Below are positions 1 to 9,993 of a stretch of 64,000 bases of DNA, one piece after another (position 1 is the first letter of the stretch; every line of letters begins with the position of its first letter). The position numbers were made by a program, and so were the translations under genes. The notes below the pieces were generated by a model. That model was not told the DNA's origin. It made no database searches and saw only the letters and a program-made list of their open reading frames with translations. The DNA is taken from assembly GCA_020746875.1 (NCBI GenBank), contig JAGTJL010000001.1:2852001-2916000 (forward strand), read 5' to 3'. The stretch is from Rhexocercosporidium sp. MPI-PUGE-AT-0058 (taxonomy: Eukaryota > Ascomycota > Leotiomycetes > Helotiales).

Positions 1-761
1 GCCTGATCGATCATGCCACGAACCTTCTGAACGACTTGACGACGGACAGAGCTTCCCGTGATGCTTCATCTCGTCCCCTCATTTTCGTCACTCACAGCCT
101 CGGCGGCCTTGTCTGCAAGGAGGCCATTCTCCTCTCGCGAAATAACCCCGAATCTCATCTTCGGGGCATATTCGATTGCACCAATGGCATCGTATTCATG
201 GGCACTCCTCACAAGGGGTCCTGGATGGCCGACTGGGCCAAGATACCGGCTTCGGCTCTCGGTCTCGTCAAGTCCACCAACAAGTTGCTGTTAGAGATCT
301 TGGAGACGGATAACCAGTTCCTAGAGTCCATTCAGGTCAGGTTCTGGTCGATGATACGGGAACTGCGAGAAGCCGGCAGGCGTCTTGAGGTCACATGCTT
401 CTTTGAAGAACTGCCTCTGCCTGTGGTCGGGAAAGTTGTGTCCAAGGAATCAGCCACCCTTGAAGGTTACAGTTCTTTCAGCATTCACGCCAACCATAGA
501 GACATGGTCAGGTTTGGCTCCGCGGAAGACAATGGATTCGAAAGGTTGCTTGGCGAGCTGATCAGATGGGAATCACAAATCAGGGATTCAGTCGCTAGTC
601 AACCAACACGATTGATGGAAGGAAAGGTCGAGGGGCCGGGCCACACGTTTTCCAATTTCAGTGGCGAGCAATTCAACGCTCCTGGTGGAACTCAGAACAT
701 CGCCAAGGGCGAGGGCAACCAGTTCCCTGGGTCAACTTTTAGCGGGTCTGTTCAATTTTGA
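1..761 (+). CDS. SesB-like serine esterase/lipase with C-terminal sigma amyloid motif, 5' partial
   Basis: The open frame enters from the window edge (frame from base 3) and ends at TAG 759-761, so the N-terminus is missing. The visible part has the alpha/beta-hydrolase nucleophile elbow FVTHSLGGLV (about base 80-110), a GTPHKGSW motif typical of fungal NLR-associated esterases, and a late His (ANHRDMVRFGS) that can be the catalytic base. The last 35 or so residues change character to Gly/Asn/Gln-rich sequence ending in GNQFPGSTFSGSVQF. That tail matches the sigma-type amyloid motif of fungal SesB effectors and is shared with the SesA-like and NLR genes next door. Family knowledge: such esterases are cell-death effectors switched on by amyloid templating from an NLR. 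The role here is inferred from domain pairing and neighbours. Confidence 0.82.
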   Translation, partial: LIDHATNLLNDLTTDRASRDASSRPLIFVTHSLGGLVCKEAILLSRNNPESHLRGIFDCTNGIVFMGTPHKGSWMADWAKIPASALGLVKSTNKLLLEILETDNQFLESIQVRFWSMIRELREAGRRLEVTCFFEELPLPVVGKVVSKESATLEGYSSFSIHANHRDMVRFGSAEDNGFERLLGELIRWESQIRDSVASQPTRLMEGKVEGPGHTFSNFSGEQFNAPGGTQNIAKGEGNQFPGSTFSGSVQF

Positions 762-1309: not shown

Positions 1310-1939
1310 TCAAGCAAAGGACACAGTCGAATAGAAGTTAGCCCCAGGAAGTTGGGGGCCCTTGCCCTCGCCCTTGGTGATGTTCTGAGTTCCACCAGGA
1401 GCGTTGAATTGCTCGCCACCGAAATTGGAAAACGAATTGCCCGACCCCTCGTTTGGCACAGACGGCTCCATCTTGGACAACTTGTCTATTGCTTCGCGCA
1501 ATCCCTTGACGTGATCTTCCATTGCAGCCTTAATCGCATCGTTCTCGGCCAGGTCGCATACATCCTTCATCATCCCAGTCGTCAAGACCTCCACTGTCCT
1601 TCCCTGGCCATGTCGTTGCACGGCCGCTTTGTAACGCTGGAACCTCGAAGTCTCCGGTGCTTGAGCGACGTCCTTGAATATGCTCTCAGACAGCTTTGCT
1701 TTTGTATTGCAGGCCTGCAGTGAGCGTATGGCGCTTTGGGGATCTCCGGCTAGGTTGCGTCCGTCTAGTTGAGTGTTGGCTCCCTGGAGAGCCTCCCGGA
1801 CAAGGAGTAGCCCTCGACCTGCTTCATGGAAGGCCTCTCGGAGACCCTTATCATCCTTGACAGTATTGTAGTGTTTCGTGGTGGCCTCGAGAGCGGCGAT
1901 CGTGCTGGAGATCAAGCTAGTGACGTTGGTGCCTGCCAT
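1310..1939 (-). CDS. SesA/HeLo-like domain protein with C-terminal sigma amyloid motif
   Basis: Single-exon gene of about 209 residues. I start it at the ATG at 1937-1939 (MAGTNVTSL) because the helical domain begins there; an in-frame ATG 17 codons upstream adds only a hydrophobic, non-conserved lead. Residues 1-150 are the all-helical SesA/HeLo-like N-terminal domain found at the head of fungal NLRs and in stand-alone effectors (AALEATTKHYNTVKDDKGLREAFHE-type start, then alternating helices). Residues 170-209 are Gly/Asn-rich (SFSNFGGEQFNAPGG, GTQNITKGEG) and end GPQLPGANFYSTVSF, the sigma motif. It is convergent to the SesB-like gene and divergent from the NLR. By family knowledge it would be a membrane-acting cell-death effector triggered by amyloid templating. 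Function is inferred. Confidence 0.82.
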   Translation of the reverse strand: MAGTNVTSLISSTIAALEATTKHYNTVKDDKGLREAFHEAGRGLLLVREALQGANTQLDGRNLAGDPQSAIRSLQACNTKAKLSESIFKDVAQAPETSRFQRYKAAVQRHGQGRTVEVLTTGMMKDVCDLAENDAIKAAMEDHVKGLREAIDKLSKMEPSVPNEGSGNSFSNFGGEQFNAPGGTQNITKGEGKGPQLPGANFYSTVSFA

Positions 1940-3483
1940 CTTTGTACGCAGGATGAGATTAAGGATAATAGTATGGTTCGGTGCGGCCAACTTCTAATAT
2001 TTTTCCTCAATTCGGACAAGTTACTTAGCGAGAAGTTCGCGAGAGAATGCGTGTATAGAACAGAACAGATCTGCTGATGGGACTCGAGAAGGAACAAATA
2101 TATTGCCGCTTACAGTGCCTAGAATATGTTTTCCTTCTCTTTTGTGGGACAACCTTCTTTCTTGCAGAGGGCTCGATCAGACAAGACCACTTGCGCATAC
2201 TCCGTAGCCTCCTTATCGCACCCTCGTTGCGAGCCAATGAGATGTTATCAGTCTAATATGAGGCTGGCTGAGTGCTCTGTCCGTGGTCACACGTCACTCC
2301 CCACTACTTTAAGCCCCGATGTGGGGTGCCCCCGGGCGGACAGATTCGGTACTGGCCATTAGTTGAGCCAAGTTGAGCCAACACCTGCGGCCGACATCAC
2401 ATCCTGCTTACAGTAGTAATTTCAAACCCCCAATCGGTCCTGTTAAGCACGGAATTTGCAGGGCGCTAAAGAAAAAGAAATCGTAGTCCAGAAAATATCC
2501 CTCATAGAGTGTGGCTGTGTGGGTAACAGGTGAGAATGCAAAGGTGGTGCAAGGGTTGCATATCTGATAAAAGCGGACGCTAAACCACGGCTAAGGCTTC
2601 AAACTATTGGTTTTGACCAAGTTGCCGACCAACCACATTTTAGTTATTACGAAGTTCCCAGCGCCACAACCCCATTTGTTCTCCAACAGAATGCATCACC
2701 ACCTGCATTGAAGAAACCAATCCCCACTCCAGAGATGGGCAACTGTGCCAAGCTAATCCATTCTGGACATCTTGTGCCAGCCTGAGCAAACACATCCATC
2801 CGCTGGATCAGCAGGTTCGTCCACCGAGGGTCCAGAGAACATACCAAGTCGCTCCAACAGTCGACATACAACACATCAGCCAGTTAGTGCATCGGTTAGT
2901 GCATCGCTGAATAGTTGCCTGTCCTCTACGACCTGTTCCTGCCGAGCGCGCTACGCTCAAACGTCTCGTCTTAGCTTGCAAGGGCAGAATGTGAAGAGTC
3001 ATTATAATCTAATGATTAGGCTGCTTTTGCACTTCGCAGGCGTTAAGCTGCCGCTGGGCTCGCGAACGAACCTCTACGTGCTGTACAGTACTTGTTTTGT
3101 TCTTCTCATTATGGCTGGAGTCTCGTTTGTACCCCTCTATGTCCCGTCTGATAGCGCTATCACAGTTTCGCGAAGCTCCATTGACGACGCCCAGCTGGCC
3201 ACCTCCAGCCTCTTCAGCTCCGCGATAAGCGCCTAAGAATATCCCACAGGTTCACTTCGCATCTTCTCGCACATTTATTTGCCCTTCTCCCGACGAAGAG
3301 GTTTTCATAGTCATCTTCTTTTCCCCGCTTTTGTCATTTCGCCGGAAATACCAGCCCTGTGAGGAGTGTTTGCTTAGTAAAGCCCTCGGATCTACCCGCT
3401 GTATTCAAGCTCACTTTCGTCAGGCGCAACTCCAATTATCTTAGCTTCGTCCTCGGCACTTCTTCAATTAATCTAACGTGGCA
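1940..3483. other. Shared upstream region between the SesA-like gene and the NLR
   Basis: About 1.5 kb between the divergent SesA-like and NLR starts, presumably holding both promoters. I see two short tandem duplications: a GTTGAGCCAA pair near 2363-2382 and a GTTAGTGCATCG pair near 2883-2907. Pyrimidine-rich stretches precede the NLR start (3240-3350). No coding frame is convincing. Confidence 0.4.
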
Positions 3484-6400
3484 ATGGAGAAATACACGGA
3501 CGCAACATCTCAGTCGCCTGCCAGCTATCCGTCGGGAAGCGAGCAACCGCAAGCAAGCGGCGACCTTACCCTATCCAATCCACGATCACGCCCCGAGACA
3601 GAATACTCTGAGCCGTCTTCCGGGAGCTCATCCTTTAACAACCGCGGCCCTGGGGCTCAATTCAACAATCTTGGGGTACTCAGAACATCAGCAATGGCCT
3701 TGGCCCTCAACTCCCTGGGGCTAGTTTCAGTGGGACTGTGTATTTTGGCAACATATATCGTGAGTTGGTGTTAATGTTATCGTAAATCATCTACATGGCT
3801 AAGTCTAGCTATGATTTCACACGCAGGAATTAAAGTGAGTTAAAAGTACATACTAATTCTCGGCAGAGACACCGAAAGAGCCGGCCCGGAGTAAGAAGGA
3901 AAACGACTTTCTGAAGTGTCTCTATGCATCACCATACCGAGATCGAAAAGACCGAAACCCAGATCGGGTCCCAGGGACATGTGACTGGTTCGTGTCTCAT
4001 GAGCTCTTTCGTGGCTGGCAAGAGAGCAAGTCATCAAGAATACTTTGGGTGTCTGCAGATCCCGGATGCGGAAAATCGGTTTTAGCAAAGTACCTGGTTA
4101 ATTCTGTTCTTCCGACCACAGAATCCAGAACAGTGTGTTACTTCTTCTTCAAGGACGACTTTGAGGACCAGAGAAATGTGGTTAGCGGTCTTTGCTGTAT
4201 CCTACGCCAGCTTTTCAAGCAGAAACGCATCCTGCTCTCTGATGCAATTCTCGATCAGTTCGACACCGACGGAGAAAAGTTCACCAGCTCATTCCATGAA
4301 CTTTGGCAAACCCTTATTAACGCCGCAAAAGATAAGAATGCCGGCGAAATCATCTGTCTTCTCGATGCGATCGACGAATGCGAAGATCAAGGAAGGTCTC
4401 AGCTCATCAAGGCATTACGCCTATACAGCACAGAGAGCAACTTTAATTTGAAGTTTCTCTTGACATCTCGGCCCTATCATAAAATTTGGCTAGGATTCCA
4501 GCCGCTAGAAGAAGCTCCAGGGTTACCAGTAATTCATTTGAGTGGGGAAGATGAGGTTGAGATGGGAAAGATTTCCCGAGAGATCGATATTTTCCTCAAA
4601 GCCAGAGTCCAGGAGATCAAAAAACCACAGAAGCTTACAGATGACCAGCAAGACCTTCTATTGCGAGGGCTCATGCGTGTTCCTAATAGGACATACTTAT
4701 GGGTACACCTTACCTTGAACTTGATAGAGCAAGACATCAACATCGACATCGACAAAACTGGAATAGCCAAGGCCACTTCTTGCCTTCCCAAAACAGTTGA
4801 CGAGGCATACGAGAGGATCCTCTCTAAGAGTCCCAATTCCGAAGTGGCAGAGAAGATACTGCATATCGTTGTGGCAGCAGCACGGCCCTTGACCTTGAGA
4901 GAGATGGACTTGGCGTTAGATCTTCGAGAAGATCATCAGTCCTATAGTGACCTCCATCTCACACCCGAAGACCATTTCCGTGGGAAGGTACGAGAAAACT
5001 GCGGGCTCCTCGTGACGATCATCAACTCGAAAATCTACCTGCTTCACCAAACCGTGAAGGAATTCTTAGTTCAAAACGATACAGTGAATTCTCCTAAAGG
5101 CGTTCATGGAGATCTCAAATGGAAACACTCACTACGACCGCAAGAATCTCATCGTATTCTTACCGAGATCTGCATCTGGTACCTACTTCTCGCAGAATTT
5201 GAGACCCATCCTCTTGACGAGAACGGACCACTGTCCCAATACGTTGAGCGTTATACCTTCCTCGACTACTCTGCCAAACATTGGACCGACCACCTCCGAG
5301 AGTCGCAAGTCGAGATACAAGACGCATTAACAGAATCAACACTGAGAATCTGTGATATAAGTTCAAGGCGTTACCTGACTTGGTTCAGAATCTATTGGAC
5401 AAGCACAAAAACAGATTTTCCCTTGGGGTTCACCACCCTTATGATTGCGTCCTATTTCGGACTGAGGGCAGCGATGGGGCGTTTGCTTAGGATTGGTGAC
5501 ATCGACCCGAATACTCAGGATAAAACATACCAGCGGTCGGCGCTATCTTGGGCAGCAGGAAGGGGCTTTGACGCCGTTATCAACCTGTTGATCAAAGGCG
5601 CTACCAGAAATATGTTCAATGTAAAGCTGGGGAGGAAGAAAGCCAAAGTTAACTCGGTAGATAAATATGGTCGGACGCCATTAACGTATGCTGTTTGGGA
5701 TGGGAACGTGGCCGTCGTCGAGCTGCTCATTAAGGCGGGGGCCAGAGTGAACTCGGAAGATAAGATTGGAGGGACGCCATTATCTTATGCCGCTTGTAAT
5801 GAAGATAAGAAGGTGTTCGAGCTACTGCTCAAGAAAGGAACCCAAGTTGATTCAGTGGACGACATTAGTAAGAAGCTACTGTTCTCCGCTGCGGAGAAGG
5901 GCGATGAGGCAGTTGCTAAGCTACTGCTCGAGGCGGGCAGAGTCGACGTCGAGGCGCAGGATGATTTCGGTCGGACGCCACTGTTGTACGCCGCGGAGAG
6001 AGGTCATGCGGCGGTAGTGGAAGTGCTGCTCAAGAAGGCCAAGATCAATGCCCAGGACAAGATGGGAGCGACGGCGTTGCACTGGGTGGCGCGGAATGGA
6101 CATGGGGCAGTAATGTCACTTCTGTTGAAGAACGGAGTTGACATTAAAGCGAGAGACAAATGTCGTGGCACACCATTAGCCTGGGCAATTGAAGGCGACT
6201 TCGAAACGGGCATTAGGATATTGCTCGGAGAAACCTCAGAAGTGGAGTACTGGTATAACCCTGTGAGTGTACCGAAGCCTGAGATAAGCAAATCTCTCCG
6301 TCGACTCAATAGCTGACATTACCTTCTTTGGCTGTTATAGGTTGTAAGTGAACTCGACCCGCCTTGCGTTGCGCTGAATCGGTTATTAATGTTGGCGTCT

Positions 6401-9400
6401 TTGGCTGTTATAGGTTGTAAGTGAACTCGACCCGCCTTGCGTTGCGCTGAATCGGTTATTAATGTTGGCGTCTTTGGCTGTTATAGGTTGTAAGTGAACT
6501 CGACCCGCCTTGCGTTGCGTTGAATCGGTTACTAATGTTGTTATTTTTGGCTGTTATAGGAAGTAAGCAAACTCGACCCGCCTTGCGTTGCGCTGAATCG
6601 GTTATTAATGCCGCTTTCTTTGGTTATTATAGATTGTAAGTGAACTCGACCTGCCTTACGTTGCGTTGAATTGGTTACTAATGTTGTTATTTTTGGCTGT
6701 TATAGGATGTAAGTAAACTCGACCCGCCTTGCGTTGCGCTGAATCGGTTACTAATGCCGTTTTCTTTGGTTGTTATAGGATGTAAGTGAACTCGACGCGC
6801 CTTGTATTTCGCTGAATCAGTTACTAATGCCGCTATCTTTGGCTGTTATAGTATGTAAGTGAACTCGACCCGTCTTGCGTTGCGCTGAATCGGTTACTAA
6901 TGCCGCCTTCTTTGGTTGTTATAGGTTGTAAGTGAACTCGACTCGCTTTGCGTTGCGCTGAATCGGTTATTAATGTTGGCGTCTTTGGCTGTTATAGGTT
7001 GTAAGTAAACTCGACCCGCCTTGCGTTGCGCTGAATCGGTTACTAATATTGTTATTTTTGGCTGTTATAGGATGTAAGTAAACTCGACCCGCCTTGCGTT
7101 GCGCTGAATCGGTTACTAATGTTGTTATTTTTGGCTGTTATAGTATGTACGTGAACTCGACTCGCCTTGCGTTGCGCTGAATCGGTTACTAATGTTATTA
7201 TTTTTGGCTGTTATAGGTTGTAAGTGAACTCGACCCGCCTTGCGTTGCGTTGAATCGGTTACTAATGTTGTTATTTTTGGCTGTTATAGGAAGTAAGCAA
7301 ACTCGACCCGCCTTGCGTTGCGCTGAATCGGTTATTAATGCCGCTTTCTTTGGTTATTATAGATTGTAAGTGAACTCGACCTGCCTTACGTTACGTTGAA
7401 TTGGTTACTAATGTTGTTATTTTTGGCTGTTATAGTATGTAAGTGAACTCGACCCGCCTTGCGTTGCGCTGAATCGGTTACTAATGCCGCCCTCTTTGGC
7501 TGTTATAGGGTGTAAGTGAACTCGACTCGCCTTGCGTTACGCTGAATCGGTTACTAATGTTATTATTTTTGGCTATTATAGCTTGTAAGTAAACTCGACC
7601 TGCCTTGCGTTGCGTTGAATCGGTTATTAATGCCGCCCTCTTTGGCTGTTATAGGATGTAAGTGAACTCGACGCGCCTTGCGTTGCGCTGAATAGGTTAC
7701 TAATGCTATTATCTTTGGCTATTATAGGGTGTAAGTAAACTCGACCCGCCTTGCGTTGCGTTGAATCGGTTACTAATGCCGCCTTCTTTGGTTGTTATAG
7801 GTTGTAAGTGAACTCGACCTGCTTTGCGTTGCGTTGAATTAGTTATTAATGTTGCCGTCTTTGGCTGTTATAGGAAGTAAGTGAACTCGACCTGCCTTGC
7901 GTTGCGCTGAATTAATTATTAATGTTGTTATTTTTGGCTGTTATAGGTTGTAAGTGAACTCGACCCGCCTTGCGTTGCGCTGAATTGGTTATTAATGCCG
8001 CCCTTTTTTGTTGTTATAGGGTGTAAGTGAACTCGACCCGCCTTGCGTTACGCTGAATCGGTTATTAATGTTATTATTTTTGGCTGTTATAGGAAGTAAG
8101 TAAACTCAACCCGCCTTGCGTTGCGCTGAATCGGTTATTAATGTTATTATTTTTGGCTGTTATAGCGTGTAAGTAAACTCGACCTGCCTTGCGTTGCGTT
8201 GAATCGGTTACTAATGCCGCCCTCTTTGGCTGTTATAGGATGTAAGTGAACTCGACGCGCCTTGTATTTCGCTGAATCGGTTACTAATGTTATTATTTTT
8301 GGCTGTTATAGGAAGTAAGTAAACTCAACCCGCCTTGCGTTGCGCTGAATCGGTTATTAATGTTATTATTTTTGGCTGTTATAGCGTGTAAGTAAACTCG
8401 ACCTGCCTTGCGTTGCGTTGAATCGGTTACTAATGCCGCCCTCTTTGGCTGTTATAGGATGTAAGTGAACTCGACCCGCCTTGTATTTCGCTGAATCGGT
8501 TACTAATGTTGTTATTTTTGGCTGTTATAGTATGTAAGTGAACTCGACCCGCCTTGCGTTGCGCTGAATCGGTTACTAATGCCGCCCTCTTTGGCTGTTA
8601 TAGGGTGTAAGTGAACTCGACCCGCCTTGCGTTGCGCTAAATCGGTTATTAATGTTGTTATTTTTGGCTGTTATAGTATGTAAGTGAACTCGACCCGCCT
8701 TGCGTTGCGTTGAATCGGTCACTAATGCCGCTATCTTTGGCTGTTATAGTTTGTAAGTGAACTCGACCCGCCTTGCGTTGCGTTGAATCGGTTACTAATG
8801 CTATTATCTTTGGCTGTTATAGTTTGTAAGTGAACTCGACCCGCCTTGCGTTGCGTTGAATCGGTCACTAATGTTGTTATTTTTGGCTGTTATAGGGTGT
8901 AAGTAAACTCGACCCGCTTTGCGTTGCGCTAAATCGGTTACTAATGCCATTATCTTTGGCTTTTATAGGGTGTAAGTAAACTCGACCCGCCTTGCGTTGC
9001 GCTGAATCGGTTACTAATGTTGTTATTTTTGGCTGTTATAGCTTGTAAGTAAACTCGACCCGCCTTGCGTTGCGTTGAATCGGTCACTAATGTTGTTATT
9101 TTTGGCTGTTATAGGGTGTAAGTAAACTCGACCCGCCTTGCGTTGCGCTGAATCGGTTACTAATGTTGCTATTTTTGGCTGTTATAGGATGTAAGTAAAC
9201 TCGACCCGTCTTGCGTTACGCTGAATCGGTTATTAATGCCATTATCTTTGGCTGTTATAGTATGTAAGTGAACTCGACCCGTCTTGCGTTGCGTTGAATC
9301 GGTTATTAATGTTGTTATTTTTGGCTGTTATAGGGTGTAAGTGAACTCGACCCGCCTTGCGTTGCGTTGAATCGGTTACTAATGCCGCCTTCTTTGGTTA

Positions 9401-9993
9401 TTATAGGTTGTAAGTGAAATCGACCCGCCTTGCGTTGCGTTGAATTAATTACTAATGTTGCCGTCTTTGGCTGTTATAGGAAGTAAGTGAACTCGACCCG
9501 CCTTGCGTTGCGTTGAATCGGTCACTAATGTTGTTATTTTTGGCTGTTATAGGGTGTAAGTAAACTCGACCCGCTTTGCGTTGCGCTAAATCGGTTACTA
9601 ATGCTATTATCTTTGGCTGTTATAGGGTGTAAGTAAACTCGACCCGCCTTGCGTTGCGCTGAATCGGTTACTAATGTTGTTATTTTTGGCTGTTATAGCT
9701 TGTAAGTAAACTCGACCCGCCTTGCGTTGCGCTGAATCGATTACTAATGCCGCATTCTTTGGCTGTTATAGCGTGTAAGTAAACCTGGTTAGTTCTCAGT
9801 AGGAATATTCATTTAACGACGCTAGACGCCGCTCATGCGGGCTGTGGAGAGAGGAAATCAAACTGCCATCAGCCTGCTACTTGAGAAGGGTGCTACTCCA
9901 AACTCCGTAGGCGCGTATGGTCAGTCGCCTCTGTCGTTGGCTGAGGGAAACGAGACTGTTATCAAGTTGCTGGAATCGTATAGAAAGTCTTGA
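3484..9993 (+). CDS. NLR (STAND) protein: sigma motif, NACHT, ankyrin repeats; frameshift in motif and intron array in repeats
   Basis: The model is exon 1 at 3484-3759, an intron at 3760-3866, a main exon at 3867-6262, the intron array, and a last exon at 9826-9993. Exon 1 gives a Ser/Pro-rich leader and then the sigma motif (QFNNLG, GTQNISNG, GPQLPGASFSGTVYF). The motif is split over two frames at the GGGG run 3673-3676, and only the second frame joins the NACHT exon in phase. The main exon shows Walker A (DPGCGKSVLAKYL, about 4060), Walker B (LLDAIDECED, about 4360) and LLTSRPY. Ankyrin repeats run from about 5430 (GRTPLTYAVWDG, GATALHWVARNG). The last exon continues them (TPLMRAVERG, GQSPLSLAEGNE) and ends at TGA 9991-9993. 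Exon ends at 6262 and 9825/9826 are both phase 0. The known role of such proteins is ligand sensing and seeding of amyloid on SesA/SesB effectors. The motif frameshift may make it non-signalling, or may be a homopolymer error. Confidence 0.85.
6341..9774 (+). repeat. Tandem array of 47 x 73-bp intron-like units inside the NLR gene
   Basis: From the first triplet at 6341 to the last at 9772 the register advances by exactly 73 nt 47 times (3,431 nt). Each unit reads NNN, then GTAAGTRAACTCGACCCGCC, then TTGCGTTGCGYTGAATCGG, then TTAYTAATG, a T-rich tract and GGCTGTTATAG. That is a 5' splice site, a branch-point-like TACTAAT/TATTAAT and a 3' splice site, so each unit is a potential 70-nt intron followed by 3 nt. 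I read all units: GT and TATAG are kept everywhere. The donor deviates only as GTAAGC (near 6563 and 7293) and GTACGT (near 7147). The array starts inside the 3' end of a normal-looking intron (donor GTGAGT at 6263, CTGAC at 6313) and stops ten bases into a final one (9775-9825, TTTAACGAC branch, GCTAG acceptor). Confidence 0.95.

What the first reader, a model, noticed from the sequence alone, without database searches (positions are those of the whole stretch)
6263..9825. A 47-copy tandem array of complete intron-like units inside an NLR gene
Each 73-bp unit is a self-sufficient intron (GTAAGT, TACTAAT/TATTAAT, TATAG) plus 3 nt. The array replaces a single intron in the ankyrin part of the NLR. 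Forty-seven units keep one 73-nt register over 3.4 kb with no net indel, and GT...AG is kept in every one. A plain minisatellite in a dispensable intron would be expected to lose some of these signals. It could be spliced as 49 introns, recursively, or as one 3.56-kb intron. I know introner-like elements and stwintrons in fungi, but not a head-to-tail intron array of this kind.
Basis: partly seen in the sequence, partly recalled or inferred. Interest (0 to 1): 0.92.

Follow-up and report, generated by a model that had tools for sequence, protein, structure and literature searches.

The report
Immune-receptor gene with 48 one-codon exons
A fungal immune-receptor gene appears to carry 48 exons of just three letters each, separated by near-identical 70-letter introns; an arrangement of this kind has been reported in truffle immune receptors, and here it also appears in two other kinds of gene in the same genome.

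Summary
Window 6325-9784 holds 47.4 copies of a 73-bp unit with no indel; GT, branch motif and YAG are intact in 47 of 47 units. The splice signals are the least variable columns of the unit (rotation rank 1 of 73). The better reading is not 'an intron array replacing one intron' but an array of 48 one-codon, phase-0 exons between 49 introns. A paralogous NLR elsewhere in the genome shows an unexpanded form: three matching introns and two one-codon exons at the same ankyrin position. Those two codons bring that ankyrin repeat from 31 to 33 residues. No dispersed copies of the unit were found. A genome pattern scan found unrelated intron-codon arrays in other genes: a secreted-protein-like gene and a pair of HET-type genes. 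Prior art exists: 'tens of codon-sized microexons' in Tuber melanosporum NACHT-ankyrin genes (Iotti 2012, seen only as cited). I file the window gene as a new member of that kind. There were no transcript data, and the NLR's N-terminal sigma domain is split over two frames in this assembly.

The parts
3484..3764 (+). N-terminal sigma (amyloid-type) domain of the NLR gene, its two halves lying in different frames in this assembly
   Evidence: Translation; Pfam NACHT_sigma profile 18-42 on 3675-3764 (E 5.5e-8) and, below the cut-off, profile 2-17 on 3556-3774 (E 0.0092); 3484-3672 alone gave no family at 0.001
3992..6262 (+). NLR exon: NACHT-type NTPase (NPHP3_N), winged helix, ankyrin repeats; ends in phase 0 after 31 residues of an ankyrin repeat (start is the mechanical ORF start, not a mapped exon border)
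   Evidence: ORF; Pfam; phase and repeat spacing
6263..6340 (+). First intron, 78 nt, homologous to the first intron (79 nt) of the paralog
   Evidence: 55 of 80 aligned columns identical to paralog B0, z 8.6 over shuffles
6341..6343 (+). First one-codon exon (GTT)
6344..9774 (+). 47 tandem units, each a 70-nt intron plus a 3-nt exon (over all 48 one-codon exons including 6341-6343: GGT 10, GTT 9, GAT 7, GAA 6, TAT 6, CTT 3, CGT 3, ATT 2, TTT 2)
   Evidence: consensus intron matches the paralog's middle intron in 49 of 71 columns, z 7.9
9775..9825 (+). Last intron, 51 nt, homologous to the paralog's last intron (51 nt)
   Evidence: 37 of 52 columns identical, z 7.7
9826..9993 (+). Terminal NLR exon in phase 0: final ankyrin repeats and stop codon
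   Evidence: Pfam Ank E 5.3e-7; 62% identical to the paralog's last exon

Best explanation
The region is a tandem array of one-codon exons. Two neighbouring phase-0 introns separated by a single codon sat in the loop between two ankyrin repeats of an NLR. Unequal recombination duplicated a 73-bp piece made of the 3' half of the first intron, the codon and the 5' half of the last intron. Every duplication therefore creates a new complete intron and adds one codon without disturbing the frame. The paralog has one full unit (two codons); this gene has 47 units (48 codons). Short fungal introns are thought to be recognised by intron definition (recalled), so three-letter exons can be joined one after another; the three exonic letters are just the exonic part of a 5' splice site. 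Because every exon is three letters in phase 0, any unit can be included or skipped with the frame kept, so the gene probably makes receptors whose loop differs in length and sequence. Shown: anatomy, phase, homology to the paralog, lower variation of splice signals. Inferred: the duplication path, splicing unit by unit, variable inclusion, a recognition role for the loop.
For: Paralog G000:C1:3183851-3184057(-): introns of 79, 71 and 51 nt, each homologous to its counterpart here (z 8.6, 7.9, 7.7), with one-codon exons GAT and CGG between them. The two codons turn a 31-residue ankyrin spacing into 33; the paralog's four other spacings are all 33. Over their whole length the paired introns are 69-71% identical, while the 5' hexamers are the same in all three pairs, the ends are the same (TATAG, TATAG, CTAG) and the branch motif stays YTRAY (CTGAC/CTGAC, CTAAT/CTGAC, TTAAC/TTAAT) (read from the alignments). 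Within the array, signal columns carry 0.27 departures per column against 4.22 elsewhere, rotation rank 1 of 73; an unrelated array (C20) shows the same, 0.36 against 4.5, rank 1 of 68. In C20 31 of 31 spacers are 3 nt although the introns vary from 63 to 66 nt; in C12 27 of 27 are 3 nt while the introns vary from 53 to 87 nt. The whole-genome pattern intron-NNN-GTAAGT gave 56 hits (28 of them in this array) against 0 for the reversed pattern. The reading phase is 0 at each locus, given the start codons that I chose by eye for C20, C12 and C23.
Against: No transcript or protein data. The sigma domain at the N-terminus is split over two frames, so the gene may be broken or the assembly may hold an error. 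Full inclusion puts 46 more residues than the paralog has into an ankyrin loop. 0 of 117 spacers is a stop codon, but triplets shifted by 1-2 nt also gave 0 of 107 each; avoidance of a third-position A after TA/TG gives p=0.008 over all copies but p=0.36 on distinct spacers, so codon content does not prove coding. The C12 array gave only rotation rank 9 of 74 (C12+C23: 5 of 74), in part because C/T exchange in the YAG was counted as a departure; 1 of its 25 units lacks GT (ATAAGT) and 1 of 25 lacks a YTRAY. For the proposed origin of the unit: the start of the last intron resembles the unit clearly in the paralog (z 6.8) but hardly in the window gene beyond the first letters (z 1.8 over 35 nt).
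Confidence: 0.82

Rival explanations
1. A plain minisatellite inside one 3.56-kb intron; the splice-like signals are relics kept only by recent homogenisation.
For: Identical units (e.g. units 3-4 equal 13-14) show recent segmental duplication, which preserves any motif; no RNA evidence; direct joining would keep the frame.
Against: Signal columns are the least variable of the unit. The paralog has matching introns and two codons without an array, and the codons complete a 33-residue repeat. Unrelated arrays with the same three-letter spacing exist in other genes.
Confidence: 0.1
2. An introner-like element or other mobile intron that piled up at one site.
For: Many near-identical complete introns, as in fungal introner-like elements.
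Against: All 47 genome matches to the unit lie in this one array; the 5' half as a pattern (up to 3 mismatches) also gives 47 forward and 0 reverse, all here. The end introns match the paralog's own introns.
Confidence: 0.02
3. Recursive (ratchet) splicing: the units are stepping sites for removal of one long intron and the three letters are not kept in the mRNA.
For: A 3' site followed closely by a 5' site resembles a recursive splice site.
Against: Three letters separate AG from GT in all 48 cases, so stepwise splicing at these sites would keep them; and the paralog's two codons complete the repeat length.
Confidence: 0.05
4. The gene is a dying pseudogene and the array is drifting (not exclusive of the best explanation for how the array arose).
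For: Sigma domain split over two frames.
Against: The NACHT-ankyrin frame is open over 757 codons and the array signals are intact in 47 of 47 units; a single-base assembly error in a G run would look the same.
Confidence: 0.15

Closest known systems
[quoted passage not shown] 2012; paper not held, seen only as cited in passages of PMC3689799, PMC4986451, PMC10197012)
   Same: NLR of NACHT-ankyrin type; tens of exons of 3 bp in the sensor part; proposed diversification by alternative splicing
   Different: Here one array of 48 near-identical units, a paralog with two, a sigma-domain NLR, and a genome with at least 150 HET matches (Tuber is recalled to have two HET genes). Intron lengths, unit similarity and array layout in Tuber could not be compared.
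Micro-exon genes (MEG) of Schistosoma (PMC10526429: abstract and passages seen)
   Same: Many tiny exons, mostly multiples of three, varied by splicing; the C20 gene here also looks secreted
   Different: Schistosome exons are 3-81 bp by the abstract, 6-81 bp by the text, with introns of up to 5 kb, and encode secreted proteins; here introns are about 70 nt, exons are one codon each and the window gene is a NACHT-ankyrin receptor
Tandem exon duplication (e.g. arthropod Dscam1; recalled)
   Same: Tandem copies of an exon with its flanking intron halves give splicing variety
   Different: The exon is a single codon and the copies need not be mutually exclusive
Fungal introner-like elements (PMC4457414, listing only) and Hypoxylaceae sister stwintrons (PMC8469720, passages)
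   Same: Multiplication of near-identical introns in a fungus
   Different: Those are dispersed or nested; here copies are head to tail at one site and each has its own complete signals

Membership tests
Codon-sized microexon NLR genes (Tuber nank type) | NACHT plus ankyrin architecture | tested here: met
   Pfam NPHP3_N E 1.8e-36 and ankyrin families
Codon-sized microexon NLR genes (Tuber nank type) | Tens of exons of 3 bp within the sensor part | tested here: met
   48 three-letter phase-0 exons by sequence only; two in the paralog completing a 33-residue repeat
Codon-sized microexon NLR genes (Tuber nank type) | Alternative splicing of the microexons in transcripts | not testable with these tools
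   No RNA data
Codon-sized microexon NLR genes (Tuber nank type) | Expanded paralogous family sharing the organisation | tested here: inconclusive
   Among 43 loci examined (L038-L080, several of them the same places) only this gene and one paralog show intron-NNN-intron; one genome pattern scan found no further NLR array, but it hits only 28 of the 47 units here and misses the paralog
Introner-like elements | Dispersed near-identical copies as introns of unrelated genes | tested here: not met
   47 of 47 matches in one array
Stwintrons | One splice element of an outer intron interrupted by an inner intron | tested here: not met
   Every unit has its own 5' site, branch motif and 3' site
Schistosoma-type micro-exon genes | Secreted product | tested here: not met
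   NACHT-ankyrin receptor; only the separate C20 gene looks secreted, read by eye

The most novel reading that the evidence does not exclude
This fungus uses arrays of one-codon exons as a general device for building variable protein segments codon by codon. The device arose separately, with unrelated intron sequences, in NLR, HET-domain and secreted-protein genes. Each array grows by duplicating an intron-codon unit and, because all exons are one codon in phase 0, splicing can include any ordered subset.
Probability: 0.45. Interest if true: 0.87.

Novelty: new member of a known kind. Interest (0 to 1): 0.63.

Why it matters
With an unexpanded paralog for comparison, it suggests how dozens of introns can be gained at one site by duplicating a three-letter exon with its intron halves, which bears on the open question of intron gain. 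It extends codon-sized microexons, so far found cited only from truffle NLRs, to another genome and there to HET-domain and secreted-protein-like genes. If spliced as read, it lets a receptor change one loop residue by residue through recombination or splice choice. Three-letter exons are hard for gene finders and read aligners, so such genes may be mis-annotated in other fungi.

Tried and rejected
Introner: rejected, no dispersed copies found. The looser 3'-half pattern with 3 mismatches gave 203 forward and 135 reverse hits against 123 and 147 for the control; the forward excess is 80, of which 48 (47 units plus the first intron) are this array, and the rest was not examined. Stwintron: rejected, units have complete signals. 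Coding tandem repeat: rejected, period 73 is not a multiple of 3 and all three frames of the unit have stops. Stop-codon avoidance as proof that spacers are coding: rejected as not decisive. Pfam naming of two pieces of the degenerate C23 gene: no family, best E 0.16; the HET label for that pair rests on the C12 copy and on the similarity of the two, compared by eye. Species: not determined. The RPL3 gene's best solved-structure matches are listed without organism (I recall 7r81 as Neurospora and 7olc as Chaetomium), which only suggests a filamentous ascomycete. A second genome pattern (CTGAC branch motif), meant to find further arrays, did not complete, and the first finds only 28 of the 47 units here, so the list of arrays in this genome is a lower bound. 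The single hit C34:2010887 was not resolved.

Full report
What is there. The window lies at G000:C1:2852001-2916000 of a 62.7-Mb, 60-contig genome. An NLR gene on the + strand has a NACHT-type NTPase and ankyrin repeats, with a sigma domain upstream whose halves lie in two frames. Its ankyrin part is interrupted from 6263 to 9825. Within this, 6325-9784 is a tandem array of 47.4 copies of 73 bp with no indel. In the register that starts at 6344, each of 47 units is a 70-nt intron-like sequence (GTAAGT in 44 of 47, GT 47/47, branch motif YTRAY 47/47, YAG 47/47) followed by three letters. A 78-nt intron-like sequence precedes the first three-letter exon and a 51-nt one follows the last. Exon 1 ends in phase 0 and the terminal exon begins in phase 0, so the structure reads as 49 introns and 48 one-codon exons.

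Are the signals maintained? Of the 70 intron columns, 2 of 16 signal columns vary against 29 of 54 others (Fisher p=0.003). Variation is mostly at G/C columns, where signals show 0 of 3 and others 23 of 29 (p=0.017); at A/T columns it is 2 of 13 against 6 of 25 (p=0.43). The 5' site alone is not significant (2 of 6, p=0.30). Rotating the set of signal positions through all 73 registers, the true register has the fewest departures. The copies are not independent, so the p-values are a guide only.

The paralog. A search with the NLR protein found a relative whose match stops one residue short of the end of the query exon (C1:3184061-3184498, 56% identity, query 611-756 of 757). Downstream it has introns of 79, 71 and 51 nt, separated by GAT and CGG, then a terminal exon homologous to ours. 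All three introns align with their counterparts (55 of 80, 49 of 71 and 37 of 52 columns; z 8.6, 7.9, 7.7). Its middle intron corresponds to the unit that was amplified in the window gene. In the paralog the TPL-type anchors of the ankyrin repeats are spaced 33, 33, 33, 31 and 33 residues, and the two one-codon exons turn the 31 into 33. That is the best evidence that three-letter exons are used. In the window gene the spacings are 33, 67 (one anchor not matched by the pattern), 32, 33, 31 and 33, with the array at the 31.

How it arose (inferred). The unit's end is like that of the first intron (z 6.6 here, 8.3 in the paralog). Its start is like that of the last intron clearly in the paralog (z 6.8), but in the window gene only over the first letters (z 1.8 over 35 nt). 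Duplicating the piece [3' half of first intron, codon, 5' half of last intron] yields a new complete intron and one more codon each time, and the frame is kept. Identical unit pairs at offsets 1, 3, 9, 10 and 15 show later block duplications. The three-letter positions 71 and 72 are among the three most variable columns (entropy 1.40 and 1.57 bits; column 54 has 1.56).

Other arrays in the genome. The pattern GTAAGT-N(32-60)-CTAAY-N(6-30)-TAG-NNN-GTAAGT gave 34 forward and 22 reverse hits against 0 and 0 for the reversed pattern: 28 in the window array, 21 on C20, 5 on C12, 1 on C23 and 1 on C34. C20:469-471 kb(-): period 68, 31.5 copies, in a gene whose first exon, read by eye, looks like a signal peptide with a Lys-Arg site near its end; 31 of 31 spacers are 3 nt (one could be read as 6), 8 of them Cys codons, with introns of 63-66 nt. 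C12:821.5-823.6 kb(+): 27 of 27 parsed spacers of 3 nt with introns of 53-87 nt and one more (GCG) just downstream (by eye); then an exon that reads in phase 0 and, in the same direction about 0.66 kb beyond the array, a HET domain at C12:824238-824693 (E 3.9e-30). One C12 unit begins ATAAGT and one lacks a YTRAY. C23:2906-2908 kb(-): a paralog of the C12 gene with 10 of 11 parsed 3' sites intact and one ATAAGT unit; its coding part has stops. Signal columns are the least variable in C20 (rank 1 of 68) but not in C12 (rank 9 of 74) or C12+C23 (rank 5 of 74), where C/T exchange at the YAG was counted as a departure.

Prior art. [quoted passage not shown] 2012)'; PMC4986451 (passages) and PMC10197012 (passages: '3-bp long microexons') say much the same. 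Iotti et al. is not held; from memory, its abstract likens these genes to schistosome micro-exon genes and reports two HET genes. A 2024 paper states that functional microexons had not been described in filamentous fungi, while citing Iotti et al. in its list (PMC11121469, abstract and passages). The genome here has at least 150 HET matches (150 of 526 candidates scored), so it is unlikely to be Tuber, but the species is not known. In the searches I saw no paper on such arrays in HET-domain or secreted-protein genes of fungi; their listings were capped and subscription journals are mostly not held.

Verdict. It belongs to a kind already cited from truffles. What is added here is the unexpanded paralog, the size and regularity of the array, and unrelated arrays in two other gene classes. 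Splicing itself remains untested.

Noticed in passing
L086:1509-3653 (- strand; G000:C20:469-471 kb): A second, unrelated intron-codon array (period 68, 31 three-letter spacers, 8 of them Cys codons) in a gene whose first exon looks by eye like a signal peptide with a Lys-Arg site; reminiscent of schistosome micro-exon genes.
   Followed up: partly
L087:498-2601 and L089 (G000:C12:821.5-824.3 kb); L088 (G000:C23:2906-2907.9 kb, - strand): Paralogous HET-type genes with intron-codon arrays of different length (28 and about 10 three-letter exons) right after a short first exon; the C23 copy is degenerate.
   Followed up: partly
window 36-761 (+) and 1310-1990 (-): Neighbouring genes end in sigma amyloid motifs (NACHT_sigma E 2.7e-13 and 4.7e-10; the second also SesA E 1.8e-37), so the locus looks like a sigma-type NLR/effector cluster; the first looks by eye like a lipase-type domain.
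   Followed up: partly
window 3670-3680: The two halves of the NLR's sigma domain lie in different frames: a broken N-terminus or an assembly error in a G run.
   Followed up: partly
   Followed up: no
L039 (G000:C23:2914862-2916781, - strand): An NLR relative with six TAG stops in its match lies about 7-8 kb from the C23 array.
   Followed up: no
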